In this document: piece by piece, positions 1-37,123 of the stretch
Position numbering within the stretch: the first letter of the stretch is position 1
Layout: each line of letters opens with the position of its first letter
Source of the DNA: Isoetes taiwanensis
Taxonomy: Eukaryota; Streptophyta; Lycopodiopsida; Isoetales; Isoetaceae
Length of the DNA stretch: 64,000 nt
NCBI GenBank assembly: GCA_021234155.1
Contig: JAJEKV010000274.1
Coordinates: forward strand, 124,001 to 188,000
Reading direction: 5' to 3'
Translations under genes and position numbers: made by a program
Notes under the pieces: generated by a model
What the model was told of the DNA's origin: nothing
Databases searched by the model: none
The model's input: the letters and a program-made list of their open reading frames with translations, nothing else

Positions 1-92
1 TTCAAATTCAAATTCCTATTCTTTGGCCCCTTCCTGTTCTTTGCCTACGTCCTGTTCTTTGGCTCCCTCCCTGCTGCGAGCTCCAATCCATT

Positions 93-840
93 GTGGATAT
101 GGATGTCAATGAGGTAATCGTACACAAACCGGCATTTCGATGTGAGAAAACGAAGAAGAACCAAGGAACAAGAAATGTTGAAGAAAAGACGCCAGAGGAA
201 AAGAAGAAGAGAAGAAAAATTGGAGCTTGCAGAATTGGCAGAAGGATCCGGTTCATCAAGAAGTGCAAGCGAACGTCGTATTGTCCTTAGTTTGCTAACG
301 TCTTTCCATAAAGCGGACCAAAAGAATGGAGGATAGCACGAAGAAAGAAATTTTACTTGATTTTTGAGGGATAAAACATTGGAAAAATTCATAGGTGAAG
401 AATTAAAGGATTTGGAAGCCAAGAGCATCGTTATAAGGAGCCTCACGGGACTCCATGCGGTCGCCAAACTCTCTACCGGCAATGATCGCCTTAGCGCCCA
501 AGAATAGTCCGCCTTGCAATGTACCACTACCGACACGTCGCGGATTCGAAACAAGTGACAAAATCAGCCCGGTGAGATCTTGGAAAGGTATTAGGTGTTC
601 ACCCAAGAAACACGCAAAAGGCAAAAAAAAAAGAGGGAAGAGATCGATTACAATGGTGGGAAATGGGTTTCTTACAAGAGGGCTAAAAGATTCGATGCAA
701 TTTCGGATGAACATATAGAAAAGATTCAAAAATTTTGGATTGAGAACACCGAGTGTCTCTTAACACAAAGGATGTTAGAACTAGAAGATTGGAGAGAAAT
801 GTAAGAGAAGAACATGCTGCCCACTATCCGGAGGAATCAC
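93..840 (+). pseudogene. Probable N-terminal exon(s) of the A1 transposase, frameshifted
   Basis: Overlapping short open frames give a very basic Lys/Arg-rich start (about 142-336). Further on (about 595-804) comes a stretch ending in a segment of the kind DEHIEKIQKF..NTE. In the A2 copy the same segment reads SPNTKDVRTRR, which resembles the 'S..PN.KDV' segment I know from the N-terminal half of uncharacterised eukaryotic DDE proteins of the type encoded at 2640-4575. The frames do not join without shifts, so this is a decayed exon or exons. The intron after it would span roughly 840-2640 and hold the antisense ORF and the minisatellite. The homology is recalled by eye, so the call is moderate to low. 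Confidence 0.4.
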
Positions 841-1256
841 AAAGTTAGTTTATTTACATTAATCATGTTTTCTTAGTTATGGTGCTTAGTGTGGTGGTGC
901 ATGTGGTGGTTATTGTGTTGTCTGATGATTGTGGTGTCTTGTATGCAAACATGTGAATTGTGTGTAGTTGACTCTAGTCCGAAATGCAATATTTAATGTT
1001 TGGAATATTATTAAAACATGGCGTAATTGAGTACTCCTTTCTTTGGGTGTGTGTGTACAGATCTAAAAATATTTGAGTTATAACTAAGCGATCACGAGAT
1101 ACAAATTTTTGTTGAATAAAGACAACCAGATTCAAGCACAGCTCTGTTGGAAAGTATGATATATTAAAAAAATGATCTTACAAAATTTGGCTTTACAAAA
1201 TTTGGCTTTCCATTGAAAGCTCTGTACCCGAGAACTAAATTTACATGCATGATTTC

Positions 1257-1742
1257 CTAAACAACGAAATCTTTGGTATGACTGGCTCGAGAACTGGTGC
1301 ATCCAAAATTATTGTTTTCTACACTAAAACATCTAAGCTTTCTGCAGTCATCCCAAAATTTAACAGGATGAGGTTTGCCAGTGCTTCCTGCATCCCCTGG
1401 TGGTGGCACGCAATTACGCGGTAAAACCCATTTGTTGCGAGTCGAGCGGACAAGTGTGAGAGAACAAATATGTCTGCCCTTTGCGCTGACAAAGATGTAA
1501 TAAGGCCGATGGACCTTGTCTAAGAGCTCTCTTCCTGTCAATATGACTCCAAGCATAGCCATTGAAGGCCCAGCATCCAGTCTGTTGTATGCCTTTAGGT
1601 TGGATTCGAAATCAGCAAAGAAGGTGGATTTAGGCATATCCACCTTCAGAGATTGATCACGAGCCCTGTTTAACATGTGCCGAATGCCCTCCTCGGTCAC
1701 CCTACAATAGCCGTAGTGATCTCTGAACATGGATCCTACCAT
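1257..1742 (-). pseudogene. Antisense ORF inside the A1 transposase intron, frameshifted copy
   Basis: This minus-strand frame starts MVGSMFRDHYGYCRVTEEG and is homologous to the longer open frame at 36533-37123 in element A2. The two agree for about 90 residues (to LLDKVH). After that this copy is shifted and part of the coding sequence is missing, and the last residues (ENNNFGCT) match again. The family is not recognised. It lies opposite to the transposase, in what should be its large intron. A captured host gene fragment or an accessory element gene are both possible. Confidence 0.5.
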
Positions 1743-1940
1743 GTTGCCGGAATGAACCTGTTTCTATTTGGCGCGAATTGGGAATGAAACGCCAAAAATC
1801 AGACGTAGGAACAGGATTTAGGACCCAGATCCTTTTCTAATGATTAGAAGAGGAATGTAATTATTATCAGGGTGTACGAATTTCAGAAGTGTTTATGAGA
1901 GCAGGCTAGGCAGATTTTTTATGTCAGACGAAATAGGATA

Positions 1941-2520
1941 AAAGTGATGTGATGTGATGTGTGGTGTCGTGATGGTGTGGTGTGGTGTGGTGTGGTATGG
2001 TGTGGGTTGCGTTATGTCCATGGTGTCATGTGGGTGTGTGCATGTTAATGTATGATCTGGAGAATCTCCCCCCTCACCCCACCACACCCCATCTATCCCA
2101 CCACCATAGACTACCACCACATCTTTGCGACCACCACATTACCACCACATGCACACACATCCCACCACATCCCACGCCACACCCCTCCACCACCACCACC
2201 ACACTCCACCACCACCACATCACATCACAATCCACAACACCACACCACACTACCACTACTCCCCCCCCCCCCACCACACTCCACCACCACCACACTCCAC
2301 CACACACCACCACGACCACCACACTCCACCACACCACATCATAGCACCACACACCACTACACACACCACACCACACACCCCTCCACCACACTCCACCACC
2401 ACCCCCCCACCACCACACACCACTCCACCACCCACCACCACCACTCCACACTCCACCATTTGGTGTATGGTGTGTGGTGAATGATATGGTGTGTGGTGGG
2501 GTGTGGTGTGGTGTGTGGTA
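1941..2520. repeat. CCACCACAC / GTGGTGTGG minisatellite in A1
   Basis: A low-complexity array built from CCACCA, CCACAC and CACTCCA words occupies about 2085-2460, with GTGGTGTGGT runs on both sides (1940-2000 and 2462-2520), so the block can fold on itself. All long open frames across it (Thr/His/Pro or Val/Trp/Gly only) are artefacts of the repeat. The same array is at 35640-36400 in inverse orientation, and a short piece is at 18780-18905. It therefore belongs to the element rather than to the site. Confidence 0.9.
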
Positions 2521-2639
2521 ATGTACTGACACTAAGGTGCTCGCGGGTGAATATGATGAGTGTGGGGCATGGTATGGTGCATGGTTTGGTGTGGTATACA
2601 CATCCTAACAGTTTAGTGTTCATTTCATGCAGATGCTAT

Positions 2640-4575
2640 TGTTCAAGAGGTTTACGGACCAACATCAGAAATTAAATTAAGATTCTTCGAGCTTTTGAGA
2701 AGCTAAAACCCACGGTTTGTTGTGAAATTGAAAGACTTCAATAGTTGTTGTTGTATGCAAAGACGTGAGGATGCAAATGCTAGTGGATGGACTCAATGGG
2801 ATGAGAACCAAACATCCAGAAGAATTGCACTTGCACTGCGATGTTTGTAGATCACATGAACTTGGTCAATGCAGGGCACATCAGCATAAAATTGCAAGTA
2901 CAGGAAGCTTGTGGAGATCTATATTGTGTCCAAAGAGTGAATTAGATGAGTTTCACAAGAAGGCATGCATCCTTGGAAATTGTGAGTTGTGTGGAATCAA
3001 GAAGTTTCAGACCTGTCCCATGGAAGCAAGTGGCAGTAGGAAAGTGAAATGGGAGTACATTGACTATGAAAAAGACAACGTCTCGAGTTCTGGTAGGAGA
3101 CTGACTCATCAGTACAATGAGATAGAACCCAAGGAGCTTCTGGATAAACTGAAAGAGCGTCTAAAAATTTTTCCACTGCATAATTTCAGGTACCAATGGC
3201 AGGCAAAACAGTTTAAGGAGCTTCTGGAGAATCTCCCAGCAGATGCATGTCTCTCGGTAGTGGATTTTGCAGAGAACTATACATTCAAGGAACAAGAGGA
3301 GGTGCAGTCGATGCGCTGGGTCAATAACCAGATTACCATTTTGGTTCAAATAACATATCAGTATGACTCAGTGGCAGATGAGATTATCAAGGAAACATAT
3401 TACTATGTATCAGATAATAGGGAACACGATACTTTGTTCGTGCAACACTGCTTCATGAAGCACCACAAATATCTGGAGCAGAAAGGAAGGGTTCCAAAGA
3501 GACATTATGTGTTTTCAGATGGTGCAGCATCTCAATTCAAGGCTTCTAGACCATTTTACTTTGTGACTAGGTACACAAACGACACTGATATCTATATGAT
3601 GTGGAATTTTTTTGGTTCTAACCACGGGAAAGGTGAACACGATGGCAAAGCTGCTGAGTTGAAGAGATGGTTAAGACAACTACAATTAAAATACAGCAGC
3701 ATAAAATTGGGTAATGCTCATGAAGTGGTAGAAGTTGCCGGAGAGATGTTTACTTGTGGAACATCCGAGTGGATGAACACATCTGAAACCAGTAAGAGGA
3801 AGAATATAAAAAGGTTCTTTTGGGAAGTCAAGGTGGAGGATATAGATAGAAAGAAAGCATGGGGTGCGAGAAAGGATTTTTGGACACTAGGCGGATCCAT
3901 TGTGTACATGCATTCAATCCACGAATCTCCATTGCAGATTGCACACGAGGGAACTTTCATGCTTTCGCGACTCTTGCTTGGATGGCATGTGGGGACAGTT
4001 GTGTGAACAAGCACTACGTTGATGATTGGAAACTTCAAGTCATTGTACCATCCTCCAATGTGCATGCCGACATTGAGGACCGTAAATCAGCCAGGTCCTT
4101 GTTCTCCTCCAATCCCACGATGTTAGCGAGAGGCACTTAGAGTTGGTGATAATTTTCTTTGTCGTTGCTCGAAAGGGAATGATAAGGGTTCTGAATTTTG
4201 GATTACGATGTGCACAAAACCAAAATGGATAGTGGAGAAAGACTTCCAACTCAATGGAACATGGTACCTGCCGCCGGTGATAGTGTCATAGAAGGTATGT
4301 ATTACAAGAAGGGTGCAAGATCAACCGTCGCCTATGATCTTTGCAAGTAAAGACGCCTTTAGGCATAGTATTCACAACACGGATCCGTGCAATCGGACTT
4401 CACATGCCACCAACTAAACGTCAAAACAGAAGATTTGTATATATTTTGGATCCTTTAGATGAGGAGAAAATTTTACGAATTTACCCGAAGTTCTTTACGA
4501 TGATGATGAAATGTAAAATCATTACAGTAGTTTTCAGAACTCATGTGAAGTTTTGTGCTTCAAATTTGTGAAAAT
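2640..4575 (+). pseudogene. Decayed DDE-type transposase of element A1
   Basis: The longest open part (2765-4006, 413 codons from a GTG) has a Cys/His-rich first third (CDVC, CRAHQHK, CELCG). It then shows three spaced acidic motifs: VVDFAENY (D about 167), FSDGAASQFK (D about 252) and NHGKGEHDG (E291/D293). These have the spacing and context of an RNase-H-fold DDE/D transposase core and match a widespread uncharacterised eukaryotic family I recognise by motif only. A C-terminal domain follows in other frames (GDNFLCRCS, GSEFWI, IEGMYYKKGA, IRAIGLHM), up to about 4560. At least three frameshifts (near 3930, 4120 and 4275-4350) and one near 2760 break it. The start in the family lies further upstream (EKLKPTVCCEIERLQ near 2700). 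Superfamily is not settled: the 4-bp target duplications of the relatives fit few plant superfamilies, with Sola-type as one candidate. Confidence 0.75.
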
Positions 4576-4869: not shown

Positions 4870-5430
4870 TTAACCACACTTTGTCAATAATGTGAGTTTA
4901 GTTTGTGCGCTACATTTAAGTTGACTTACTAGATCGGGCAACAATATATTCACTCCTTTTAAGTACCCCTCACAAATTTGTGCATAAACGAACATCTGGG
5001 GAATACATGAATGACCATCGGTTTGAAGAGGCGTTCTAGAAATTTTCACAACATCCGAGGTTGTAAAGCTGAAATTATTGTGTCCAAGCAATTCGGGAAC
5101 ACGCACTCAAAGTTTGTTGTCATTGTGCCACAACAGCAAAATGCAATGAGCAAGCACTAACCTCTCAATATGTCTGCTTCTGCCATGCAAGCCCGAGCTA
5201 TCAAAGTGATATATCCCTGGTTTATATCTCTGTGCGAGACACGCGTGGCTTACAATCAGAAAACAGGTCCAGTGATGTCCATCACAAGCAGGCAAAAACA
5301 TGTACTGGCACTTATCCAGATTCACATGTTTCCTTATTGTTTTGTAACTATTTGTGTCCTTGGACAATGTCGAGTGAAAAAGAGGGTAACCATCATCCAA
5401 TTAAATTGGGATTATGTCAACTCCAAAATC
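4870..5430 (-). pseudogene. Ulp1-like (C48) cysteine protease domain, one nonsense codon
   Basis: One minus-strand frame reads through 5400-4870 except for a single TGA at 5107-5109. It carries the catalytic layout of C48 SUMO/Ulp1-type peptidases: GHHWTCF (catalytic His), GIYHFDSSG (Asp), then PLQTDGHSCIPQMFVYAQ (oxyanion-hole Gln and nucleophile Cys). In hosts these enzymes cut SUMO-like tails, but Ulp1-like domains are also common passengers or accessory genes in plant DNA transposons such as Mutator-like elements. It lies tail-to-tail with the A1 transposase. The N-terminal part is missing or spliced away above 5430. The stop looks like a CGA to TGA change. About 300 bp between this and the next gene (5431-5726) shows nothing recognisable beyond T-rich sequence. 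Confidence 0.7.
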
Positions 5431-5726
5431 ACGCCAACCTGCTATTGTCTTCTAGGGGGTTTTTGTTTTTTTTTTAATCTTTTTTTTTGGGCTTAAAAAA
5501 TAACATAAGGTTGCGATTCACGTGTGATGTTTCATATGCGAATTGAAATATGCAAAAATGAAGAGCAAGTTGCTAACATAGATGAGACCAAAATTGCTTG
5601 CTCGATAGATGATAATATTAGGTTTGATAATAACAGATTGCATTATTTGCGAGGCAATTCCAGACTCGAAATTATCGATACATGGCACAAATATCATACA
5701 AAAATATCATATATTCCAATAAAACA

Positions 5727-6702
5727 TTAAGGGATCAATCCATGTTTTTCCACGTATTTAACAAGGTGTGGTTCCATGTCAGCCGTTCTATCCAGTTCTG
5801 GGTATGAATCTAACACTTCACCCACCGTCATCCCCATAGCCAAATTATGCATAATAGACACAAACTTCACCAGAAAATCATCTGTCGCAAAGTTTTTTGG
5901 ATCGTAAGATGGTGGATTCAGGGCCTGTGTTTGATTGTAGAAGCATTTGAGAGCATCATCATCCACTATGATTATATCATCCTTATTCTCGATACCAAGT
6001 TCGTCCATCATGTTACTCAAGTGTTTGATGAAGATAGGCTTGCCTGTTGGATCCTTGGGATTAATGAACTTCACACATTTGTTCTGATCCCAAAAGGTCA
6101 ACCAATGTCTATGCATTTCCCCCAGTGCCTCCAAAGTATCCTTGATGTTCCTTAGTTCCATGGATGACCAAATACCAACTCGAAATAACCTGAATGCCTC
6201 ATCTAGCATCTCCTTCAAGTGCGGCCGCGGATAGATCCACTTGGTGTTTGATTCTACTGGTGTCTGATGAAATTGTTCTCTAGCCACTTTATTTTTCGGA
6301 AAAGTCTTGCAAAGGACTCCGTTTAGGTCGAACACCACAACCTTCTTAGAAACGCAATGGAAACTGAAATATCAAACATGTATCCGGTCAGCAAGATACG
6401 ATAACACAAACAATACAAACGCGCCAAGCGTGATTTGAAATAGTCATAATCAAATCGCGCTCGGCGTGATTTAGTTTGACAACGAAAAATAATCAAAGCA
6501 CGCTTGGCGCGATTTAATTCAAAGGTAATACAAATTGAATCACGCGTGGCGCGATTTCGTGGGCAAGGCCATACCTATCATCTTCAGTTTCGCTGCCGTC
6601 ATCGGCGTCATTCTCCCCTTCGCCACCCTTAATCTTCGTCTTCTTCTGACTGTTAGAATTGTTATTTTCTATTAGTTCCGCTGCGTCCTTCACAACTGAC
6701 AT
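5727..6702 (-). CDS. FCP1/NIF-like HAD-superfamily protein, two exons
   Basis: Exon 1 (6702-6575, start ATG at 6700-6702) encodes an acidic, Lys-rich leader with ETEDD. Intron 6574-6364 has GT and AG borders, and the reading frame is kept across it (AG joined to T). Exon 2 (6363-5727) completes a 254-residue protein without stops. It has the HAD motif I position VVVFDLNGVL (D55, N57), then GIWSSM with a following NIKDTL (motif II region), FIKHLSNMM, and IIIVDDDALK with a downstream NPPSYD, the layout of FCP1/NLI-interacting-factor phosphatase domains. The second Asp of the usual DxDx(T/V) is Asn, so phosphatase activity is doubtful. Plant proteins with DLNG in this place exist. It could be a host gene, or cargo of element A1. 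Four palindromic repeats fill the intron. Confidence 0.75.
6419..6557. repeat. Four CGCGCYNGGCGTG-type palindromes in the HAD intron
   Basis: Copies at 6419-6436, 6452-6472, 6495-6515 and 6537-6557 share a core near (A)AATCACGCNNGGCGTGATT, with CG steps exchanged between copies (CGCGCTCGGCGTG, CACGCTTGGCGCG, CACGCGTGGCGCG). Each is an imperfect inverted repeat of about 18-20 bases, spaced 33-43 bases apart by AT-rich sequence. All lie inside the 211-bp intron and none in the flanking exons. Confidence 0.85.
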
Positions 6703-7254
6703 TATTTTACTATTGATTTGGCAAACACTGTGGAATCACTAGAGAGCTTCGTTGCCTTCATTTTCGGTTTCCCTGTCAATTAGTTCATTGTTAACCCGTG
6801 AATCTACTCTATTGTTGCTTGCATCACCCGCAATGTGGGCAAAAATATTCCCTAAGTTTCGCCGCCATCCACAAATTACTTTGAGCAGCGGTTTAGCAGC
6901 TATTTGTTCATTCTTGCTTTCCTTATCGGGCTCTGATTACTAGGTCCCTTACCGAAGCAACGTCCACTTTCGAATTGGACAAGTCTACTGAGACTTTTGA
7001 TTGCTCGATGATTTCAGGTTGCCATAAGGGCCTTTAGGAGACTTGGCAAGCACATGCATGAGGAATGGTTCAAGAAAGTCTTTGGCATGCTCATCACTCA
7101 CAAAGCGGTGACATCTTCTTGCACCCATAAGAGCCTCTCGGGCAATATAACCTCCAACATGAAGCTCCAAGCGGGTTGTATCAATTGGAGCAAATGCCTC
7201 GGCGAGGTAAGCAGACCTTAGGCGGGGAAATCCATTTTTATTTTAGGGGCCCTT
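6703..7254 (-). other. Gap with coding-like fragment, nothing recognised
   Basis: This is the stretch between the HAD start and the next coding block. A minus-strand open stretch at 7170-6985 (starts MELHVGGYIAREALMGARRC, contains HAKDFLEPFLMHVLAKSP) reads like protein but matches no family I know. It may be the last exon of the gene upstream (7255-10712). No promoter motif is clear. Confidence 0.3.
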
Positions 7255-10200
7255 CTCCTTAGTTTGTAGCTCGTGCTTGATTTCCCCACTTAGGAGGGGT
7301 CCCGATCCTCATCCTCTTCGACTCATCCCATCTCGACCGATCCCGATCCGTATGAAAGAATATAGTTCTTAAGTCTGGATCATCTAGAAGAAAACATTCC
7401 CATGCACTGCTATTGTCACCCTTGGCCTTAGCAATATCATATTCGTCGTCTGATAGCATGGCTATCATAATGAAGATCACATGTGCCATCTTCCGTGCTG
7501 TTCGCAGCTCATTATCCTTAACATCATATATTAGGCATCCCTCCCTAATAACTTTGAGGCACTCCAGATCATGAGCAGCGGATAGTGCATGCAGATGTGA
7601 CTCACCTGAAGGATAAACGATGACAATAGTGAAGGACCTCTCAGTTGTCAATCCTATCATTTGGTAAAGAAGGCTGCCAGTAGTCCTTCCGGTTCATGCC
7701 CATATCTCCTCTCCCACCCCTGTTTGTCCAACACAAAGAGTGATATATTTTTAAGGCCAGAAGTTGATTCTGGCAAGAGACCTTTGTACCCAATGGAGAC
7801 TGAATACTGGACAGCGTCGTCTTCTCCAGTAATCTTCTTCACAAGGGCCACTTTTCTTCTCAACTCGGCCAGTACCTTAGGGGGTAGAGTCTCCTTATGT
7901 TTTGTATTTTTAGCCTTCCAATTCTTTAGGAAGTCCTTTGACCAGAATACAAACTTCTTGATGTCATCATTACTGACCTTGTATTTGTCCAGCAATCCAA
8001 TTTGGATAATGCCACATCCCCGATAGCCTTTGTAACTCGGCTCCTACAACCGACTTCATTGTGCGTACATCCTTCACATGGGCTGCAAAGCACTCAACGA
8101 AGGATATCCTATCCTTAGTGAAAGCACTCTTCTTGTATAAGACTTCCTTCTTTAACCGGGTCTAAAACCCAAATGGTCTCGGTCGTCTAGCCCCCCGAGT
8201 CTTTCTCATCTCTGTCACATTCAAGTCAAAGATGCTTACATCAACAGGAGGCACCCTACCCATAGTATCTGGCAGCTTCCCTTGTGCATAAGCGTCCCAG
8301 AATTCATTCCACTTGAGCCATACTGCCTCCTTACAAAACACAATCTTATACGAAGTCTGTTGGTCCCGACACTGCTAGATGAGCTTTGAAGGATCCGCAA
8401 TGTCATCACCACCTTTTTTTCTTTGATTTTCTTTGCGGTCTTCTTCTTCTCGTATAAATTATGCGGCGAGTCCGCTCCAGCAGCTTGAATGCCTCGGACT
8501 TTGACCCGCCATGCGGTGGGCAATGGGCAGCCATATTCCACCCTTGTTGGCCGGGCGTGGCGCGGTTGTTCCATTATGGACTGCAATAGTACGGACATTG
8601 AATCAGTATCATAGAATAGAAACACGCCGAGCGCGATTTGAATAGAATTGATCAAGAGAAAAATCACGCCTGGCGTGAAATGAATAAAGTTACTAATGCA
8701 ATTCACGCCAGGCATGCTTTCAAATCAAACCAATTCACGCCAGGCGTGTTTTCAAATCAATCGAATTCACGCCCGGTGTTCACGCTGGAGTGAATTCGAT
8801 TGATTTGAAAACGCTGGCGTGAATTCGATTGATTTGAAAACATGCCTGGCGTGAATTGGTTTGATTTGAAAGCACGCCTGGCGTGAATACAATTTCTGAA
8901 ACCAGATTTGATTTGAAAACACGCCTAGCGTGAATTCAATTTATGAAACCAGGCCGCACGTGAATTCAATTGAATTGAAAGCACGACTGGCGTGAATATT
9001 AAAATGCTAACATCCTAATGCGGTTAGTTACCTTTTGTATAGAAATGTCTTCCCCATTTCATTCAAAGTTGCACTAATCTCGCCAAATCTGCGGGTGAAG
9101 TATTGGCATCCAAGATCGACACCTCCTATACGCATAGTGATTGTAGAGAGCGTTTTGGCACATTTGTTACTTTTGCCGATGAGGGCCTTACGTGCCTCAA
9201 CAGAATGTTGCCCGTCGATGACGCGGCAATTTAATATTTTCATTTAACAATATATCACGGAAGTTCGTCCACCTGGCCGGGCTTGTTTGAGATCATATCC
9301 CAAGGTAGCACATCCGCTGGCATAGGCATTTGACTTGGATTACTAATCATGCTTGGTGAACGGAGTTTGGTGAACGGATGAGGGACTTCACATGGATCTG
9401 AAAAGTTTCCTTAAGACCCAATGGATAATGGTCGAGTATTTATTCAGCTTGTTCATGGCCTCTAGCTGCGCCACTCTGTCCTGTTCATTCTCAAAAACAG
9501 AAGCCTCCATGCCTTCGACAACTGCGGGTTGAACATCCTTCCCTAGATCTAGGACCCTCTTAGAAGCTTTCAAGTCGGCTAATTCCTAGCTTGCTGCAAA
9601 TAGTGACTTGGTGTCGGTTTAGTGAACATGCCCTCATACGCAATTTTGTAACCCCTTGGCAAATAGATATTGGCGTAATAGCGCTACATTGGTTGGCCAA
9701 CCATACTTAAAACATGTCTCACCGTTCACATCCGTCTTCATGAACATATCCTTGTATGCGGTAGCTCTACGGTGAGTAAGTCCGGCGGATCTTTCTTACG
9801 CTACGTGTAATCTCCAAGAGCAATTTGCGGTTGGTGTCATCCTCTTCCTCACAAGAGATTAGGATCCCTTGTTTGGCCATCTTATGCGCTTTCTTTTTCC
9901 TCGAGAAGAGAGTTAAGTCGAGCTTGCCATTTGTCTTGGCAAGGTCAACGTACCACTCGGCACCCTCGCCCATTTCCTCTTCAGGCGAGGCGGGTGGTCG
10001 ATTGGTTGCTATAAGAATCGGCCCTTCATCATCTAAGGTGAGATCATATGGTGCGCATCGGGTCGCCCGCCCTTGCTTTCTTGGCGGGATTAGAACCCAA
10101 TTATTAGGGGTTTTCTTCCTCTTGGTCCTTTGCAAAAGAAGATGAGCACTTTTAGAGTACTTTTCGAACAAGAGATCACGCTTTGCGTGCATTTAAACCT

Positions 10201-10712
10201 AAATTAGTACAAATCACGCTTGGCGTGTTGGTAGCTCCTATTATTGACCATGCTATCGTGAATTTGAAACTAAATTATTTTGCATCCACATTTTAAGCTA
10301 CATACCCTTCATGAATCCATATTGCACACTATTTAACCTCATTGAACATTGCTATCTCCAACTGCCTAACACCGCTATATTCTATATATAAAGCGAGCAA
10401 AATTATGTTTCTGAGAATGGACAATCGAGCATTAGCGATGGTAATACTTAAAATTCATGCAAAGCATAATAACTCAAACTCATGCAAAGCATATTAACGA
10501 AGGCAAGGAAATATCTCAAATTCATGCAAGCATAATACTCTCTCCACGATTGTGTATTACGTGGGCGATTAAATACCTTGAATAGGGTTCTCGTATTATA
10601 CGTATTCTCGATCAACGTCCTCGAAACTTGAGAAGATTTTGGGTTTAGAGTTTCCTCTTCCACCGCTTCCCTGCCCCGCCCCGCCTCGACCTCGATTCGC
10701 TTTAGAAGACAT
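7255..10712 (-). CDS. Multi-exon gene of unknown function with a DGQHS (ParB-like?) motif, possibly decayed
   Basis: Coding-like blocks follow one another on the minus strand. (1) 10712-about 10595 starts MSSKANRGRGGAGQGSGG, an Arg/Gly-rich leader. (2) 10192-9767 is basic, then acidic, with PNNWVLIPPRK. (3) About 9767-9640 holds a CFKYGWPTN segment. (4) 9573-9388. (5) 9243-9031 has VIDGQHSVEARKAL and ends at a good donor (AAAAG/GTAACT). (6) About 8575-8170 starts after an acceptor TATTGCAG and includes VWLKWNEFWDAYAQGK, with shifts. (7) 7995-7259 is long and open in two overlapping frames. DGQH resembles the DGxHR box of ParB/Srx-like folds, but that alone is weak. Several frame breaks suggest decay or wrong joins. 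I do not recognise the gene. Its introns carry the CACGCCAGGCGTG palindromes. Confidence 0.4.
8621..8997. repeat. Dense cluster of CACGCCAGGCGTG palindromes with a larger foldback
   Basis: About twelve copies lie here, for example at 8621-8639, 8662-8681, 8701-8719, 8732-8750, 8764-8780, 8779-8796, 8811-8824, 8841-8856, 8872-8888, 8918-8936, 8952-8966 and 8978-8997. The typical copy is (A)TTCACGCCWGGCGTGAA(T). They are separated by a second conserved word, GATTGATTTGAAAA or its reverse complement TTTTCAAATCAATC. The orientation of that linker flips near 8783, so about 8700-8890 is itself a large imperfect hairpin. The cluster lies between an exon ending at about 9031 and one starting at about 8575, that is, in an inferred intron. 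Confidence 0.9.
10174..10230. repeat. Two more CACGC..GCGTG palindromes
   Basis: Copies at 10174-10194 (ATCACGCTTTGCGTGCAT) and 10212-10230 (ATCACGCTTGGCGTGTT) lie between the first and second coding blocks of the minus-strand gene. No further copies were noticed right of here. Confidence 0.8.
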
Positions 10713-11436
10713 CTCCGAGTCGCCTAGTAACGTAGTCGGAAGGTCGCTGGGATCTGCCTTTCGAAGCTGCTTTCGAAGAAATAGCTTTTTCTAATGCGAA
10801 ATAGAGAAATTTGAATTTCAAGAAAACACAAAATGCAATATTCTTGACACATACAAATAATAATGAAGGAAGACCCGTCCGCCCGACTTCTTTCATTAAG
10901 TTTTTAAAACCAATCTACCCAAAAAGTATCCCCAAATTTATCCCGCCTAAACGTAGTTAACCTAATCTTTCTTCTAATTGAATTTTCCGACCCTTGAGTT
11001 TCCATAGCGCACGGGATTTCGAGAACTCAAATCAACTTCTCAAGAATGGCTCTGAGAATTTTGGTACTCATCTCATTCCAATAGCTTGAACATTAATTTC
11101 CAATAGTAGGTTAATCGAATAGCAATTTTCTGCAGGTGTCAAAGATGAATGTTTCATGTTAACTACAAATCAGAAAAAGGAAAGTAGGATTATGCAAGAT
11201 CGACTCCATCGATCCGACCGTAAACTATCATGGAATTCGCTCGGGGATAAGTATGTCAGAAGTTCTGATGATTAATCTAGCTGCGCTATAGATGAAGCTT
11301 TACCTCGCAGACACCCCGGTGGGGATACGGTTGGAGAAAGTGTTGGAACATTTGTTGCATGGCCAAGAAACCACTTAAAAAAGGTATGTAACATGTATTA
11401 CATTGTAGAAATATAGAAGTAGACAAAATTTGTTGT

Positions 11437-11530
11437 ATTCCCTATGTCACCTCGTGTGAATATGCACCCAAACCAAAGGGGATTTCAGGGGGGATTTAAT
11501 TTAAAAGTGTTGGATGTAATGCTTTGTTTA
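11437..11530. repeat. Single arm of the foldback element found at 53985-54440
   Basis: The stretch from TCGTGTGAATATGCACCC through GTTGGATGTAATG is clearly homologous to 54315-54390 (same orientation) and to the reverse complement of about 54040-54113. Only one arm is present, so this is a truncated copy. Confidence 0.75.
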
Positions 11531-18908: not shown

Positions 18909-21598
18909 ACTGCCACCTACCATAGTCCCATTGTTTTTTTATTACTTTGTTTAAGGTCCATACTAGACTAATCTTGTACAGACTAGCTAGTTTATCCCGC
19001 AGCCAAGTGGAGGACACGTATAGGCTTTTAAGTTCTACCACGTCGGGGATTATCATCGTATACCCCTAGTAACCAACTTTTATCCCGCAGCCAAGTGGAG
19101 GACACGTATAGGCTTTTAAGTTCTACCACGTCGGGGATTATCATCGTATACCCCTAGTAACCAACTTCCAAATATAAATAACATTGGCAAGGTTTGAACC
19201 CGTGACCAAATGCACATCTATTTTGGCATTACTAGGCCTATACCAACTCACCACACATCCGTTGGGCAAAACTTTTGCCTTAGATGCACACTTTGTAAGT
19301 AGGATTTAATCCCGCCTTAGGAAGTCTAGGTCCTAGGGGCAACTCTAGGGGCATGTCCTAGTGCCACCTACCATAGTCCCATTGTTTTTTTATTACTTTG
19401 TTTAAGGTCTATACTAGACTAATCTTGTACAGACTAGCTAGTTTATCCCACTGCCTTGCGGCAGCCAAATTGGAGGACACGTATAGGCTTTTAAGTTCTA
19501 TCACGTCGGGGATCATCATCGTATACCCCTAGTAACCAACTTCCAAATATAAATAACATTGGCAAGGTTTGAACCCGTGACCAAATGCACATTTATTTTG
19601 GCATTACTAGGCCTATACCAACTCACCACACATCCGTTGGGCAAAATTTTTGCCTTACATGCACACTTTGTAAGCAGGATTTAATCCCGCCTTAGAAAGT
19701 CTAGGTCCTAGGGGCAACTCTAGGGGCATGGCTTTTTAGCCTCACCATCCTAGTGCCACCTACCATTTGTTTAAGGTCCATACTAGACTAATCTTGTACA
19801 GACTAGCTAGTTTATCCCACTGCCTTGCGGCAGCCAAAGTGGAGGACACATATAGGCTTTTAAGTTCTACCACGTCGGGATCATCATCGTATACCCCTAG
19901 TAACCAACTTCCAAATATAAATAACATTGACAAGGTTTGAACCCGTGACCAAATGCACATTTATTTTGACATTACTAGGCCTATACCAACTCAACACACA
20001 TCCGTTGGACAAAACTTTTGCCTTACATGCACACTTTGTAAGCAGGATTTAATCCCGCCTTAGGAAGTCTAGGTCCTAGGGGCAACTCTAGGGGCATGGC
20101 TTTTTAGCCTCACCACATAGTCCCATTGTTTTTTTATTACTTTGTTTAAGGTCCATACTAGACTAATCTTGTACAGACTAGCTAGTTTATCCCACTGCCT
20201 TGCGGCAGCCAAGTGGAGGACACGTATAGGCTTTTAAGTTCTACCACGTCGGGGATTATCATCGTATACCCCTAGTAACCAACTTCCAAATATAAATAAC
20301 ATTGGCAAGGTTTGAACCCGTGACCAAATGCACATTTATTTTGGCATTACTAGGCCTATACCAACTCACCACACATCCGTTGGGCAAAACTTTTGCCTTA
20401 CATGCACACTTTGTAAGCAGGATTTAATCCCGCCTTAGGAAGTCTAGGTCCTAGGGGCAACTCTAGGGGCATGGCTTTTTAGCCTCACGATCCTAGTGCC
20501 ACCTACCATAGTCCATTGTTTTTTTATTACTTTGTTTAAGGTCCATACTAGACTATCCCACTGCTTTGCGGCAGCCAAAGTGGAGGACACATATAGGCTT
20601 TTAAGTTCTACCACGTCGGGGATCATCATCGTATACCCCTAGTAACCAACTTCCAAATATAAATAACATTGGCAAGGTTTGAACCCGTGACCAAATGCAC
20701 ATTTATTTTGGCATTACTAGGCCTATACCAACTCACCACACATCCGTTGAACAAAATTTTTGCCTTACATGCACACTTTGTAAGCAGGATTTAATCCCGC
20801 CTTAGGAAGTCTAGGTCCTAGGGGCAACTCTAGGGGCATGGCTTTTTAGCCTCACGATCCTAGTGCCACCTACCATAGTCCCATTGTTTTTTTATTACTT
20901 TGTTTAAGGTCCATACTAGACTAATCTTGTACAGACTAGCTAGTTTATCCCACTGCCTTGGCGGCCCAAAAGTGGAGGACACATATAGGCTTTTAAGTTC
21001 TACCACGCGTGGGGATCATCATCGTGATACCCCTAGTAACCAACTTCCAAATATAAATAACATTGGCAAGGTTTGAACCCGTGACCAAATGCACATTTAT
21101 TTTGGCATTACTAGGCCTATACCAACTCACCACACCTCCGTTGGGCAAAATTTTTGCCTTACATGCACACTTTGTAAGCAGGATTTAATCCCGCCTTAGA
21201 AAGTCTAGGTCCTAGGGGCAACTCTAGGGGCATGGCTTTTTAGCCTCACCATCCTAGTGCCACCTACCATAGTCCCATTGTTTTTTTATTACTTTGTTTA
21301 AGGCCCATACTAGGTTAATCTTGTACAGACTAGCTAGTTTATCCCACTGCCTTGCGGCAGCCAAAGTGGAGGACACGTATAGGCTTTTAAGTTCTACCAC
21401 GTCGGGGATCATCATCGTATACCCCTAGTAACCAACTTCCAAATATAAATAACATTGGCAAGGTTTGAACCCGTGACCAAATGCACATTTATTTTGGCAT
21501 TACTAGGCCTATACCAACTCACCACACCTCCGTTGGGCAAAACTTTTGCCTTACATGCACACTTTGTAAGCAGGATTTAATCCCGCCTTAGGAAGTCT
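18909..21598 (-). repeat. Tandem array of a tRNA-like (SINE-like) unit, about seven copies
   Basis: Units of roughly 360-450 bp restart at about 18921, 19372, 19764, 20116, 20506, 20873 and 21270, each marked by CATAGTCCCATTG or its remains. The first unit has an internal 87-bp duplication (18994/19081). On the minus strand each holds TGGTGAGTTGG and, about 45 bases on, GGGTTCAAACC, which resemble Pol III A and B boxes of tRNA-derived SINEs. The array was cut by element B, and its last piece is at 35281-35381. Short open frames in it are repeats of the same noncoding frame. Confidence 0.85.
21596..21598. repeat. Target-site duplication TCT, left side of element B
   Basis: The array unit reads GGAAGTCT before CACAAGG. 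TCT recurs at 35281-35283 after CCTTGTG, where the unit continues as AGGTCCTAGGGG. Uninterrupted units (for example near 20440) read GGAAGTCTAGGTCCTAGG with a single TCT. Confidence 0.88.
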
Positions 21599-28763: not shown

Positions 28764-28972
28764 AACAAGGTGACGGTGCAAACGCACTAATGACCTATGG
28801 TGCAATTGCAGATTCCTTTTTCAAAAACACCAAAATTTGGTACTTTTGGCATATTTTTTAAAACATAAGAACAAAAAAAAAGGTTGCACATTGAAAAGAA
28901 CCATATTGTGGTCAAAGTAGAACAAAAAATGGGCCTTTATCATACAAGATTGCAAAATACATTACACATAGC

Positions 28973-30076
28973 CTATGCGTGCATAGAGAGAGAGACACAT
29001 TAGTTCAAATACGTAGGAGAGATATAAGCTCATGAAAATGTAATCATCACATTTGCATTAAACAAGGCCAATTTCGTTTTTAAGCGTCAAGCCGTTTTAA
29101 CCTTTTGAATAGCGATTTGTCTATGCGCGCATAGACAGAGATAGTCAATTTTAAGTACTCTAGAAAGAATGCAAGTCAAATAATAAATAATAATGGCACT
29201 TGAACTCGATTAGGTCGAAGAGTTTTAAATATCAAGTGGAACTTGCTTAGCATGAAGGTTTTCTTTGTTGTTGTCATCTTCGTCAATCGTTTTAACAGTG
29301 GTATCAAGTGGATTCCCTTTTCAAATCTAAAATGTTTGCCTGTTTTAGGGTCTCAAATGTAAACTTTGTTTAAAAGGACTAATAACAATGTAAAACAAGC
29401 ATAATTCAAATCTAAAATTCATGCCTGTTTTAGAGTCTCAAATGTAAACTTTGTTTAAAAGGATTAATAGCAATGTAAAACAACCACATTTGTGAAGACA
29501 ACCATAAACACAAGTTGTAGAAAAAAAAAATTATACATTTGAATTGCATTGAAGCAAATGAGAAATTCGAAAGGCAACATTTATTATTTTTTTAACTTAC
29601 AGGAAGATCACAAAGCAAGCAACTACAGGAAGATCACAAAGCAAGCAACATATCAACTGACATTAAAATCTTTAAAGATCAATTGTTCATCTTTACATAA
29701 TATATATAAAACCAGGTGTTAGATTCTGTAAGCGGAAATGTAGATTCCTTCCTTTGATTGTACTTCTTAACTGGTGTACAAGCATTAGAATTTGATGCAT
29801 CTTTGCTTAACATTTCCCAATAAGAACTAAAGACCAAATAATAAAAGCTCATGGCATGGACATATAAATGCCTTTGAGCGCATAGGATCAACGAAAACAA
29901 AAAGTACCACTTGTCTATGTGGGCATAGAAAGGAACTCCTAAATAATATGTCATTTCTATAACACCTAGTTCAACATCTAGCCTATACTTGCATAGGGAG
30001 CTTTAAAATATATCGCTTGTCCATGCGCGCATAGACAAGCAACAATAATTAAAAGCTCTCGGCTATGCGCACATAG
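28973..30076. repeat. Left subterminal palindromes of element C
   Basis: Copies lie at 28973-28986 (CTATGCGTGCATAG), 29121-29134 (CTATGCGCGCATAG), 29872-29885 (degenerate), 29915-29928, 29983-29996, 30021-30034 (core of a 26-base palindrome at 30015-30040) and 30063-30076. Confidence 0.9.
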
Positions 30077-31024
30077 ATAACATTTAAAATCACAGTTCCA
30101 TTGAATGTAATTAAAATGTGAAGATTACGTACAGCTGCAGAGGGAAAACCTTTGAGAAACAATCAGGAAATTTTCAAAGCCCTCTTGGTCCTTGAATCCA
30201 AATAATTAAATCCTTGAGATCTTTCAGAAATAATTGATTTTGCTAGAATTATAACAATATTCTAACAACCTTACTTGAGCATGGGTAGAAAGTTTAGATA
30301 AAAGAAAAGGCCATGAATGCTGATCATATCCCTGCAACTAAGTGTTCTAGCTGCAAATTTTTAAACAAAACTATGTTAAAACTCGTAAGTGAATTACTAC
30401 GTTGTCACAAGAAAGAATTTAAATCATAAAGTTAACGGAACATGCTTCTTTAAATCATAAACTTAACTGAACACGCTTTTAAAGGCAAGTTGCTGTTCCA
30501 GAAACAAAGCAAATACAGGCATCTGGCTCTAGAAATTACTTGCAAAGAGAAGAAATAACTCAGAATATCTCAAATTTTTACCTGAAAGTCCTTGCAAAAT
30601 CATCAAAATCCACCTGCGAAATCACCTTCTAAATCACCTCAAACCTCATTTTACAAAAGAGAAAGGACCAAATTTATCTGCAAGATTGCCCCATAATGCT
30701 TTTCCATAAGTTTTCAGAGTAAAAACGACAGAACTATGAGATCAATAGATAGAATCTTCTTACCTCAGAAATCATGCTAGGGTTAGAGAAATACAGAAGT
30801 AATCCTGCTGCAAAAGTGTTAGTATAATAAGATCTCAAGTTCTAGTCTCTTATATATTGAATTAATATCTTGCACTCAAATAGATACAATAGATTTATCA
30901 CAACTGCAATATGATATTTACTTGTTTAAAATAAACACAAGAATCATAGATAAACCATCGAAAAATACTGTAGCACATTACTGCATATTACTGTTCAAAA
31001 GAGATCGCCCATTACACTGTAGCA

Positions 31025-31260
31025 GAAGATAATTTTTACCTGTTCCAGAAGATAATTTTTACCTGTTCCAGAAGATAATTTTTACCTTATACAACTGTTC
31101 CGGATCTTCCTCCGATTCCTTTGTCTTCCCGCAAGATTTGCCATCAAGACGTCCCGGATCTGCCTTCAAGATCTGCCTTCCGCAAGATCTTCCCGCAAGA
31201 TCTGCCTTCAAGATCTGCCTTCCGGATCTTCCTCCGATTCCTGTGTCTTCAAGACGTCCC
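31025..31260. repeat. Short tandem repeats in element C
   Basis: A 23-bp unit (GAAGATAATTTTTACCTGTT plus CCA) is repeated nearly three times at 31025-31087. About 31125-31260 is made of GATCTGCCTTC and CCGCAAGATCT words, which overlap as direct and inverted copies. Confidence 0.85.
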
Positions 31261-31311
31261 GATGTGCCGATTAAGCCCAAAGCTAGGTCTGGTTGAAAAA
31301 AAAACTTTGCC

Positions 31312-32245
31312 CTATGCGCGCATAGCATCGAAAAATTGCCCATGCGCGCATAGCCCCTACCTACCATGTTACCTCCTACCTACCCATTTTTTCTACCATG
31401 TTCTTGTTTCTACCTACCTAGTTTCCTCCCAACTTACCATTATTTGTTTATTTTTTTTTTTTACACAAAAGGTTGCAATCTAGGTATCCTAACAATATCT
31501 TCTTGACAAAGCCTACTATGAGAACTTAGCTTGACAACATTTTGGTGTGCAAAGTGACAACTCGTGTCTTCAAGTTGGTTCTACTTAGATAGCTCAGTAA
31601 CATTGTCTTCCTTAGCCGTGGGTATACACATGCATAACGTTGTGCTAAGTCATGATATTTTGCATTATTGTTAATTCTATAACACTCTTTCCAATGGTTC
31701 ACACTCTTGTGTAGTCACATCGCCTCACAATGCTTTAACAAACATCCACTACATCACATATTGTTGTGTGGTCATAGTGCTATGCACGCATAGCCTCACA
31801 ATAATTTTAATATTATAATAACTTATTTAAGAGCCTTGCTGCCACTTTCAACGTTGTAAAACGTAAAATTCATGTGACCATGAAATGCTTAGGACATTCA
31901 TCTGAACCAATATGCATATTGAAATCAAGAAATTCATGTTATGGCATCACACCCAAAAATGGAAGTTTGCATTTAAAATGGAGGGCAATTTTAAATTTGA
32001 ACTACAAAAAATGGTAGATGTTTAAGGTGATGACCAGTCTGAAGGAGTTGATGAGTACGACGACATTCCAATACATGCTCTTATTAAAAGCCGTAAGCTA
32101 CTCGTGTAATTTGAGTATTTGTACAGCTGTACATGACTAGTTTGTACAATGTTTGTCTTTCAAACTTAGGATCCCTGCTATGCGCGCATAGCATTTTGCA
32201 ATTTTTGTTTCTTTTTATTTTTGTGCCTTTCCCATGCACGGATAG
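31312..32245. repeat. Right subterminal palindromes of element C
   Basis: Copies lie at 31312-31325 (CTATGCGCGCATAG), 31340-31353, 31780-31793 (CTATGCACGCATAG), 32178-32191 (exact) and 32232-32245 (degenerate). Confidence 0.9.
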
Positions 32246-32608
32246 CATGTGTCTTTGCTCCTTGAGCAATAAAAATGCATCGGCTCCATTTTAATGTTTT
32301 TGTCTTGCAAAATTTGTCAAGAATTTTCTGGTCGTTTCATTTTGCCACTTTTTGTATGTGTCCCGAAAACAACTAAATTAGATTATTATTTTTCTACCTA
32401 AAATGGGGATGTCAAATTAACAAGACGCCAACTTTTTGGTAATTTTGACCCCTAAAATAGCTACCAAATTCGTAAATTTAGGGTCATTTTTTTAATTGAC
32501 CCCCCAAAAGTGGCAGAATTTAAGTGTATTTTAGGGAATCTTTGAAAGATTCCTTTTTGTGGTGCAAATGCAGGTCATTAGTGCGTTTGCTAGGTCACCT
32601 TGTTATAG

Positions 32609-35280: not shown

Positions 35281-35381
35281 CTAGGTCCTAGGGGCAACTC
35301 TAGGGGCATGTCTTTTTAGCCTCACCATCCTAGTGCCACCTATCATAGTCCCATTGTTTTTTTATTACTTTGTTTAAGGTC
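35281..35381 (-). repeat. Last piece of the SINE-like tandem array
   Basis: TCTAGGTCCTAGGGGCAAC through TTTGTTTAAGGTCCA continues the unit cut at 21598. It ends where transposase sequence of A2 begins (35382), which marks the breakpoint that removed the rest of the A2 transposase. Confidence 0.88.
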
Positions 35382-35639
35382 CACTAGCATTTGCATCCTC
35401 ATGTGCTGAATGCAACAGCAACTATTGAAGTCCTTCAATTTCACAACAAACCAGGGTTTTAGCTTCTCAAAAGCTCAAAGACGAATCTTAATTTCTGGAT
35501 GTTGGTCCAGAAACCTCTTGAACAATAGCATCTGCATGAAATGAACACTAAACTATTAGGATGTGTATACCACACCAAACCATACACCATATCACGCCCC
35601 ACACTCATCATATTCACCAGAACGAGCACCTTAGTGCTG

Positions 35640-36400
35640 TGTACATTACCACACACCACACCACACCCCACCACACACCACACCATTCACCACACACCAT
35701 ACACCATACACCAAATGGTGGAGTGTGGAGTGGTGGTGGAGTGTGGTGGTGGGGGTGGTGGTGGTGGAGTGTGGTGGTGGGAGGTGGTGGAGTGGTATGT
35801 GGTGGTGGTGTGTGTAGTGGTGTATGGTAGTATGATGTGGTGTGGTGGAGTGGTGGTGGTGGGGTGTGGTGGTGGTGTGTGGTGTGGTGTGGTGGAGTGT
35901 GGTGGTGGTGGAGTATGGTGGGGGGTGTAGTGGTGGTGTTGTGGTGTGGTGTTGTGGATTGTGGTGTGGTGTGGTGGAGTGTGGTGGTGGTGGTGGTGGT
36001 GGAGGTGTGGTGTGGTACATGGTTGAGTGTGGTGGTGGTGGAGTGTGGTGGAGGGGTGTGGTGTGGGATATGGTGGAGTGTGGTGGAAGGGTGTGGTGTG
36101 GGATACGGTAGAGTGTGGTGGAGTGTGGTGGTAATGGACAATGTGATGCATGTGGTGGTAATGTGGTGGTCCCAAAGATGTGGTGGTAGTCTATGGTGGT
36201 GGGATAGATGATGGGGTGTGGTGGGGTGGGGGAAGAATAAATAAAATTGAATCCACACATATCATACATTAACATGCACACACCCACATGACACCATGGA
36301 CATAACGCACCCCACACCACACCACACCATCACGACACCACACCACACCACACCATCACGACACCACACATCACATCACATCACTTTTATCCTATTTCGT
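35640..36400. repeat. GTGGTGTGG minisatellite of A2
   Basis: Inverse counterpart of the array at 1941-2520, here longer and rich in GTGGTGGTG and GGTGTGGTG words, with CACCACACC at 36300-36375. All long frames across it are artefacts. Confidence 0.9.
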
Positions 36401-36532
36401 TTGACATAAGAAATCTGCCTAACCTGCTCTCATAAAGATTTCTGAAATTCGTACACCCTGATAATAATTACATTCCTCTTCTAATCATTAGAAAAGGATC
36501 TGGGTCCTAAATCCCGTTCCTGCGTCTGATTT

Positions 36533-37123
36533 TTGGCGTTTCATTCTCAATTCGAACAAGTTCATTCCGGCAACATGGTAGGAAGGATGTCCAGAGATCA
36601 CTACGGCTATTGTAGGGTGAGAGAGGAGGGCATTCGGCACATGTTAAACAGGGCTCGTGACCAATTTCTGAAAGTGGAAATGCGTAAATCCACCTTCTTT
36701 GCTGATTTCGAATCCAACCTAAAGGCATACAATAGACTGGATGCTGGGCCTTCAATGGCTATGCTTGGGGTCAGATTGACAGGAAGTGAGCTCTTAGACA
36801 AGGTCCATGAGCTTATGTTACATGCTACTGCAAGGGCAGCTGGTTTATTTGTTCTCTGTCACTTGTCCGCTCTGACTCTGCAACAGCGGGAATTACTAGC
36901 ATGGTTGCGTTCGTACCACCAGGGGATGCAGGAAGCACTGGCAAACCTCATCCTGTTAAATTCTGGGATGACTACAGAAAGCTTAGATGCTTTAGTGCGA
37001 GAAAACAATAATTTTGGATGCACCGGTTCTCGAGCCGATCATACCAAAGCATTTCTGTTGCTTAGAAATGCATGTAAATTTAGTTTCAGCACAGAGCTTT
37101 CAATGGAAAGCCAAATTTTGTAA
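36533..37123 (+). CDS. Open antisense ORF in the A2 transposase intron, unknown function
   Basis: A 196-residue open frame (a start at the internal MVGRMSRDHYGYCRV, about 36575, is equally possible). It contains YGYCRVREEGIRHMLNRARD, a DAGPSMAMLG segment and a predicted helical Leu/Ala-rich stretch (ARAAGLFVLCHLSAL, ELLAWLRSYHQGMQEALANL). A frameshifted homologue is at 1257-1742. It runs opposite to the transposase, inside its intron. No domain is recognised. It is either an accessory gene or a captured exon. Confidence 0.5.
   Translation: MAFHSQFEQVHSGNMVGRMSRDHYGYCRVREEGIRHMLNRARDQFLKVEMRKSTFFADFESNLKAYNRLDAGPSMAMLGVRLTGSELLDKVHELMLHATARAAGLFVLCHLSALTLQQRELLAWLRSYHQGMQEALANLILLNSGMTTESLDALVRENNNFGCTGSRADHTKAFLLLRNACKFSFSTELSMESQIL

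What the first reader, a model, noticed from the sequence alone, without database searches (positions are those of the whole stretch)
6419..10230. A second palindrome family, CACGCCAGGCGTG, placed next to exons of one gene block
About eighteen copies occur in three groups. One group fills the intron of the HAD gene, one lies between two inferred exons at about 9031 and 8575, and one precedes another exon. None was seen elsewhere in 64 kb. The copies vary in compensating ways (CACGCTTGGCGCG, CGCGCTCGGCGTG), as if the hairpin or the half-sites were kept. This could be a set of protein-binding sites of an element, an intronic RNA hairpin family, or a self-propagating palindrome.
Basis: partly seen in the sequence, partly recalled or inferred. 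Interest (0 to 1): 0.85.

Follow-up and report, generated by a model that had tools for sequence, protein, structure and literature searches.

The report
Palindromic control sites inside plant transposons
The repeated palindromes in this quillwort DNA belong to a jumping gene, which appears to keep them in its own introns and promoter as binding sites for a protein that controls it; a related jumping-gene lineage has a similar layout with a different palindrome.

Summary
The palindromes are real (33 matches with at most 3 mismatches, both strands, against 5 expected) and lie in introns of one gene. They are not unique to this block: CACGCCWGGCGTG occurs 1771 times in the 1.66-Gb genome, against 1 for the reversed control. 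All 20 clusters sampled, of 24 listed, fall in copies or relatives of one DNA transposon. It is about 12.4 kb long, with inverted terminal repeats and 2-bp target duplications, and carries a DUF7869 gene head-to-head with a second gene holding a weakly supported ParB/DndB-like exon and a NIF/HAD exon.

The extended site is a 21-bp dyad, AAWTCRCGCCWGGCGYGAWTT, whose arms vary independently, so compensating hairpin arms are not supported. The same word sits in the same introns of families near saturation at synonymous sites, and between a TATA-like box and the start codon of the second gene. One locus of a sister DUF7869 lineage keeps a different palindrome (CTATGCGCGCATAG, 1551 copies genome-wide) in introns and promoter.

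Best reading: element-owned DNA-binding sites, working like the VANC target arrays of Arabidopsis VANDAL transposons, possibly bound by the second-gene protein. Binding is untested. The middle intron also forms a long hairpin, unexplained.

The parts
5387..5418 (-). Right terminal inverted repeat of the window copy (TAACCATCATCCAATTAAATTGGG...)
   Evidence: similarity to other copies ends here; 3378 termini genome-wide with at most 2 mismatches in 24 bp, control 0; 2-bp target duplications in 10 of 11 end pairs of other copies
5387..11440 (-). Retained part of the transposon copy (family F1); the left half, with the DUF7869 gene, is absent here
   Evidence: alignments to other copies end at 5387 and 11440
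5727..6363 (-). Last exon of gene 2, NIF/HAD-like domain
   Evidence: Pfam PF03031 E=1e-14; 152 matches in the genome with only 150 candidates scored
6364..6574 (-). HAD-gene intron (i4) with four palindromes at 6420, 6456, 6499 and 6541
   Evidence: GTATGG in 23 of 25 copies, TTTCAG in 20 of 25 (i4 recovered in 25 of 27 loci); shared sites in the majority row
6575..8580 (-). Gene 2 exon sequence (reading frame broken by small indels), no palindromes found
   Evidence: tblastn to relatives, 39-68% aa identity over matched stretches
8581..9031 (-). Middle intron (i3), largely filled by palindromes with spacers in two opposite orientations; sites e.g. 8623, 8665, 8704, 8736, 8768, 8841, 8873, 8920, 8982
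   Evidence: GTAA 17 of 17, GCAG 15 of 17 (i3 recovered in 17 of 27 loci); RNA fold z=-18 in this copy
9031..9585 (-). Exon with a ParB/DndB-like stretch (frame broken in this copy)
   Evidence: tblastn 49% with stops to the intact copy L006:5465-6070; weak hits of L006: DndB E=0.004, PHROG ParB-like E=0.017
9767..10125 (-). Upstream exon of gene 2
   Evidence: tblastn to relatives at 50-51% aa identity
10125..10575 (-). Upstream intron (i2; ends tentative, read by eye) with palindromes at 10177 and 10215
   Evidence: no strong RNA fold (median z -1.5, 15 copies)
28778..32590 (.). Sister element carrying the other palindrome word, CTATGCGCGCATAG (12 sites with at most 3 mismatches); no gene-2 or DUF7869 match found in it
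   Evidence: 19-bp end repeats at 28778 and 32572; last part 80-88% similar to two short stretches of L100, a DUF7869 element with the same word

Best explanation
The palindromes are DNA-binding sites owned by a two-gene DNA transposon of a quillwort. Shown: they lie in introns and the 5' region of the element's second gene, form a 21-bp dyad, and persist in the same introns of families near saturation at neutral sites. Inferred: a dimeric protein binds the dyads and acts in cis on the element, controlling its transcription or lifting its silencing. Most likely binder, not shown: the product of the second gene, which has a weak ParB/DndB-like exon. On this view it works like VANC proteins, which bind motif arrays in introns and upstream regions of VANDAL transposons. 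Different lineages would then carry different words read by their own second-gene proteins.
For: Genome count 1771 against control 1. 20 of 20 sampled clusters (of 24 listed) in the element or relatives: 14 by alignment of 590 bp or more, L040, L047 and L054 through gene-2 exons in or beside them, and L038, L039, L041 through DNA similarity to L047; L001 also lies in the element. Deep conservation: F1 and F4 HAD exons differ at 32 of 47 fourfold sites and i4 spacers do not align convincingly, yet of 20 further F4 stretches covering i4, 20 have at least one site and 14 at least two at 3 mismatches or fewer (16 and 10 at 2 or fewer); in shuffles a mean of 0.8 of 20 have one. F2, F3 and F4 carry 6, 10 and 8 sites against shuffle means of 0.75, 0.50 and 0.55, three of the F2 sites being probable chance matches. 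The dyad extends beyond the 13 bp used to find sites: flanking columns carry 0.3-0.8 bit each. Promoter placement in five copies: a TATA-like box starts 19-21 bp before the palindrome in 4 of 5, and the ATG follows 33 bp after it in 5 of 5. Sister lineage L100: DUF7869 E=1.6e-37, a second gene with weak ParB-like hits, and a different palindrome between the genes, before the ATG and in introns. 37 of 150 listed second-gene hits have a listed DUF7869 hit within 12 kb, all 37 head-to-head. VANC21 arrays occur in introns of VANC21 and VANB21 and upstream of VANA21 (passages of PMC5735166).
Against: No binding, expression or methylation data. The ParB/DndB hits are weak (E 0.004 to 0.14; the two with curated cut-offs are far below them), the F4 exon L058 gave none, and no DNA-binding domain was recognised in the gene-2 exons scanned. 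The word did not change between F1 and F4 although the HAD exon diverged to about 61% identity, which also fits a host factor. Within recent F1 copies the sites are not better conserved than spacers (i4 substitutions 0.081 against 0.038; i2 0.047 against 0.028); CpG decay or assembly error may explain that, untested. F5 copies without detected gene 2 keep palindromes, which also fits a transposition role. Spacings show no helical phasing once each is counted once (R=0.04, n=35). The third DUF7869 element of the window (47-48.6 kb) shows no palindrome family.
Confidence: 0.5

Rival explanations
1. The sites bind a host transcription factor that the transposon exploits as enhancer and promoter sites; the element encodes no binder.
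For: The word stays the same in F1 to F4 while gene-2 exons diverge to 39-68% aa identity, and it sits beside TATA-like boxes.
Against: One locus of a sister DUF7869 lineage in the same genome uses an unrelated palindrome in a similar layout, and the exact word was found only in the element group in the sample (20 of 20).
Confidence: 0.2
2. The sites act in transposition, as internal docking sites for the transposase complex.
For: Two elements of 4.3 and 4.6 kb with no gene 2 (bar a HAD relic) or DUF7869 gene detected still carry palindromes, as does the gene-poor sister element of the window.
Against: The nearest site is about 1 kb from the right end and none lies in the left 3 kb of copy A; placement follows introns and promoters rather than ends.
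Confidence: 0.15
3. The feature works as RNA: palindromic arrays make a long intronic hairpin that feeds small-RNA silencing or helps splicing.
For: Middle intron z -6.5 to -19.8 in 17 of 17 F1 copies; F4 -19.3; L038 -21.6; L041 -8.3; L039 -5.9 (30 shuffles each).
Against: Weak or absent elsewhere: i2 median -1.5, i4 median -3.5, F2 i3 -1.1, F3 i3 -3.6 (approximate intron ends). Arms of single palindromes do not covary. Some sites lie upstream of the start codon.
Confidence: 0.1
4. Neutral repeats: palindromes or arrays that spread by slippage or as tiny mobile units, without function.
For: Array length varies between copies (middle intron 303-499 bp in 17 copies) and site number too (1 to 10); motif not more conserved than spacer in young copies.
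Against: Word kept near saturated divergence in the same introns; shared site places in the HAD intron; no copy seen outside the element group in 20 sampled clusters.
Confidence: 0.05

Closest known systems
VANC anti-silencing proteins and their target arrays in Arabidopsis VANDAL (MULE) transposons (passages of PMC5735166 and PMC10398659)
   Same: Short motifs concentrated in one transposon family, arrayed in introns and upstream of the element's own genes; arrays expand and shrink; related elements use different motifs; an element-encoded non-transposase gene.
   Different: The motif is palindromic, VANC21's YAGTATTAY is not; [quoted passage not shown] the element has DUF7869, TAACC ends and 2-bp duplications; no DUF1985 in the gene-2 exons scanned; the word is conserved over deep divergence within F1-F4; no methylation or binding evidence here.
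DndB regulator of Salmonella, which binds two TACGN10CGTA palindromes and regulates its own gene (abstract and passages of PMC4507180)
   Same: A DGQHR-type motif protein and promoter palindromes; autoregulation is the proposed parallel.
   Different: Bacterial; similarity of gene 2 to DndB is weak (E=0.004, below cut-off); site spacing differs.
Galileo/Foldback transposons with multiple THAP-domain sites in long terminal repeats (abstract of PMC3688188)
   Same: Many short binding sites inside one transposon.
   Different: Those sites lie in the terminal repeats; here they are internal, in introns and promoter.
ParB-parS partition systems (recalled)
   Same: Palindromic sites and a ParB-like stretch in the linked gene (weak hits).
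   Different: No helix-turn-helix recognised in the exons scanned, no ParA looked for, eukaryotic transposon.

Membership tests
TIR DNA transposon | Terminal inverted repeats | tested here: met
   Ends of A, B and further copies; 3378 termini against 0 in the control
TIR DNA transposon | Target site duplication | tested here: met
   2 bp in 10 of 11 end pairs; the exception is a 19-kb pair on C352
TIR DNA transposon | Transposase gene | tested here: inconclusive
   DUF7869 exons in the left half (E=2.4e-13 and 3.9e-6); that DUF7869 is a DDE transposase is inferred, not tested
CACTA/EnSpm | CACTA-type ends and 3-bp duplication (recalled) | tested here: not met
   Ends TAACC, 2-bp duplication
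CACTA/EnSpm | Binding motifs subterminal (recalled) | tested here: not met
   Sites internal, nearest about 1 kb from the right end
VANC/VANDAL system | Motif arrays in introns and upstream regions of the element | tested here: met
VANC/VANDAL system | VANC protein with DUF1985 | tested here: not met
   No such hit in Pfam scans of the gene-2 exons given; frames are fragmentary and not every exon was scanned, so a missed one is possible
VANC/VANDAL system | Motif binding and loss of methylation | not testable with these tools
   Needs bench work
ParB/DndB-like protein | ParB/DndB-type domain | tested here: inconclusive
   DndB best E=0.004 (3 of 6 members at E up to 1); TIGR03764 E=0.04; PHROG ParB-like E=0.017 to 0.14; none for L058; no Protein Data Bank support
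Structured RNA hairpin family | Compensating changes in the arms | tested here: not met
   sites were chosen at 3 mismatches or fewer, which disfavours double changes
Self-propagating palindrome | Copies at independent places | tested here: not met
   20 of 20 sampled clusters in the element group; shared site places in the HAD intron

The most novel reading that the evidence does not exclude
A lycophyte transposon group has evolved, apart from VANDAL elements, its own matched set of palindromic sites and a ParB-like protein that reads them; each lineage carries its own word in its introns and promoters, so the pair can mark its own copies, regulate them and possibly free them from silencing, a parS-like addressing system in a eukaryotic genome.
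Probability: 0.3. Interest if true: 0.85.

Novelty: new variant of a known kind. Interest (0 to 1): 0.62.

Why it matters
If the sites are bound by the element's own protein, this would be a second, apparently unrelated case of transposons that carry lineage-specific address sites for a self-encoded regulator, in a plant lineage far from Arabidopsis. It would make the question of how mobile elements evolve self-recognition testable, since two lineages with different words sit in one genome. It also shows how a repeat that looks like an odd intron feature can be traced to a transposon control system.

Tried and rejected
Compensating hairpin arms: rejected, with the caveat that sites were selected at 3 mismatches or fewer. 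Self-propagating unit: rejected on the sample of 20 clusters. Helical phasing: raw spacings R=0.30 (n=139), but each spacing counted once gives R=0.04 (n=35), so rejected. Purifying selection visible among young F1 copies: looked for and not found (there the i4 motif mask covered three of the four sites). ParB identity by solved structures: nothing; PADLOC gave no hits. Structure prediction was not used, because its stated rule does not list loci cut from genomes. A palindrome scan of the window not tied to a given word found the two families discussed, words of the 375-bp satellite, and weaker clusters of 4 to 6 members that I take for chance. Paper searches: DUF7869 gave none; Isoetes with palindromic and transposon gave none; transposon, palindrome, introns and lycophyte gave none; subterminal, TnpA, Spm and others gave none; ParB-like with eukaryotic transposons and DDE transposase gave 4 papers, none holding the term ParB-like. 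These cover only the held library.

Full report
What was checked. The window holds the palindromes as described: 33 matches to CACGCCAGGCGTG with at most 3 mismatches on both strands, against 4.99 expected, in three groups. The genome is very probably Isoetes taiwanensis: G000 has 1,658,258,908 bases, and the published nanopore-based assembly is 1658.30 Mb (passages of PMC8566536). Many exon frames are broken by small indels; part of this is probably assembly error, an inference.

What carries them. CACGCCWGGCGTG occurs 1771 times in the genome, the reversed control once. The HAD exon beside the palindromes is itself high-copy (152 matches, with 150 of 7020 first-look candidates scored). Two copies compared in full, A on C1040 and B on C1052, share an element of about 12.4 kb (B holds a further stretch of about 4.8 kb) that starts TAACCATCATTCAATTAAATTGGG and ends in a near-complement. 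Those ends occur 3378 times, control 0. Flanking 2-bp duplications are present in A, in B and in 8 of 9 further end pairs; the exception is a 19-kb pair. The window copy keeps its right end (5387) and breaks at 11440.

Genes. The left half carries DUF7869 exons (E=2.4e-13) on the opposite strand to gene 2. Gene 2 runs through several exons to the NIF/HAD exon (PF03031 E=1e-14). One of its exons gives weak ParB/DndB-type hits: DndB E=0.004, PHROG ParB-like E=0.017. Neither would stand alone, and the F4 relative's exon gave neither.

Where the palindromes sit. In F1 they are in introns i2, i3 and i4 and in the 5' region of gene 2. Of the F1 copies in which each intron was recovered, sites with at most 3 mismatches occur in 14 of 15 (i2), 17 of 17 (i3) and 23 of 25 (i4). 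In five copies the 5' site precedes the ATG by 33 bp, and in four of the five a TATA-like box starts 19-21 bp before it. None was found in the DUF7869 half of copy A.

Sampling. The listing shows 24 clusters; 20 were taken in contig order (L036-L055), besides L001. Of the 20, 14 align over 590 bp or more to A or B. L040 and L054 are tied in through gene-2 exons of relatives, L047 through the gene 2 that follows it on the contig (L057), and L038, L039 and L041 through DNA similarity to L047.

Deep conservation. Relatives F2 (C90), F3 (C49) and F4 (C19) have gene-2 exons 39-68% identical to F1 over the matched stretches. F1 and F4 HAD exons differ at 32 of 47 fourfold sites, close to saturation, while codon position 2 differs at 0.16 and position 3 at 0.64. 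F4 belongs to a separate high-copy group: its matches reach down to about 75% identity, then F1 follows at 60-62% (best 150 scored). In 20 further F4 stretches covering i4, 20 have at least one site and 14 have two or more at 3 mismatches or fewer (16 and 10 at 2 or fewer), against a mean of 0.8 of 20 in shuffles.

The site. From 53 sites (57 found, 4 dropped as probable chance matches; some weak ones kept) the extended dyad is AAWTCRCGCCWGGCGYGAWTT. Arms vary independently: 246 of 318 positions pair, against 250.2 +/- 3.7 permuted. Selecting sites at 3 mismatches or fewer biases against double changes. In young F1 copies, motif columns are not better conserved than spacers.

RNA folding. The middle intron forms a long hairpin in 17 of 17 F1 copies (z -6.5 to -19.8), in F4 (-19.3) and in L038 (-21.6); i2 (median -1.5), F2 i3 (-1.1) and F3 i3 (-3.6) do not or hardly do; i4 is modest (median -3.5); six exon controls lie between -1.9 and 1.5. 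The spacers run in both orientations. Whether the hairpin has a role is unknown.

A sister lineage. CTATGCGCGCATAG occurs 1551 times, control 0. One locus with it, L100, carries DUF7869 (E=1.6e-37), a second gene with weak ParB-like hits (TIGR03764 E=0.04; PHROG E=0.08; none in Pfam) and a faint match to the F1 exon (tblastn E=0.004; hhalign E=0.01 but probability 4%). Its palindromes lie between the two genes, just before the DUF7869 gene's start codon, in an intron of that gene and near gene-2 splice sites (read by eye). 37 of the 150 listed second-gene hits have a listed DUF7869 hit within 12 kb, all 37 head-to-head (from the lists). Only one L100-type locus was read in full, so the link between word and lineage rests on that locus and on the window's 28.8-32.6 kb element.

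Derivatives. Two elements of 4.3 and 4.6 kb share the ends, show no gene 2 apart from a relic of the HAD exon, and still hold palindromes (3 and 5 sites). This argues for a role in cis that does not depend on a gene in the same copy.

Interpretation. The layout resembles VANC target arrays, which lie in introns of VANC21 and VANB21 and upstream of VANA21 (passages of PMC5735166), in an apparently unrelated element. Membership in that system is not claimed: no DUF1985 was found in the exons scanned. The binder is inferred; a host factor remains possible.

Noticed in passing
window 1-2787 and 35380-38318: Inverted repeat of nearly 3 kb at 85% identity, about 33 kb apart, with CCA/TGG-rich minisatellite inside.
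   Followed up: no
window 19087-21598: Array of a 375-bp satellite, about 6.6 copies.
   Followed up: no
window 47157-48604: A third DUF7869 element (PF25273 E=1.3e-33 at 47157-47513) with no recurrent palindrome family in its bin.
   Followed up: partly
window 5107-5397: Short ORF with a weak Peptidase_C57 (Ulp1-like) match (E=0.011), whose start overlaps the transposon end at 5387, as if interrupted by the insertion.
   Followed up: no
L013/L012 and L015/L014 (copies A and B with flanks): Both copies sit between inverted repeats about 27-28 kb apart, parts of which resemble each other between the two loci, perhaps a larger host element.
   Followed up: no
window 6364-6574 across 25 copies: Gaps are about eight times commoner in palindrome columns than in spacers (0.033 against 0.004), as methylation-linked nanopore error might give; not seen in i2 (0.005 against 0.007).
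   Followed up: partly
window 5727-6363: The HAD exon reads VFDLNGVLC in F1 and F3 and VFDLNVVLC in F4, so the second aspartate of the DxD motif expected in this phosphatase family (recalled) is asparagine.
   Followed up: no
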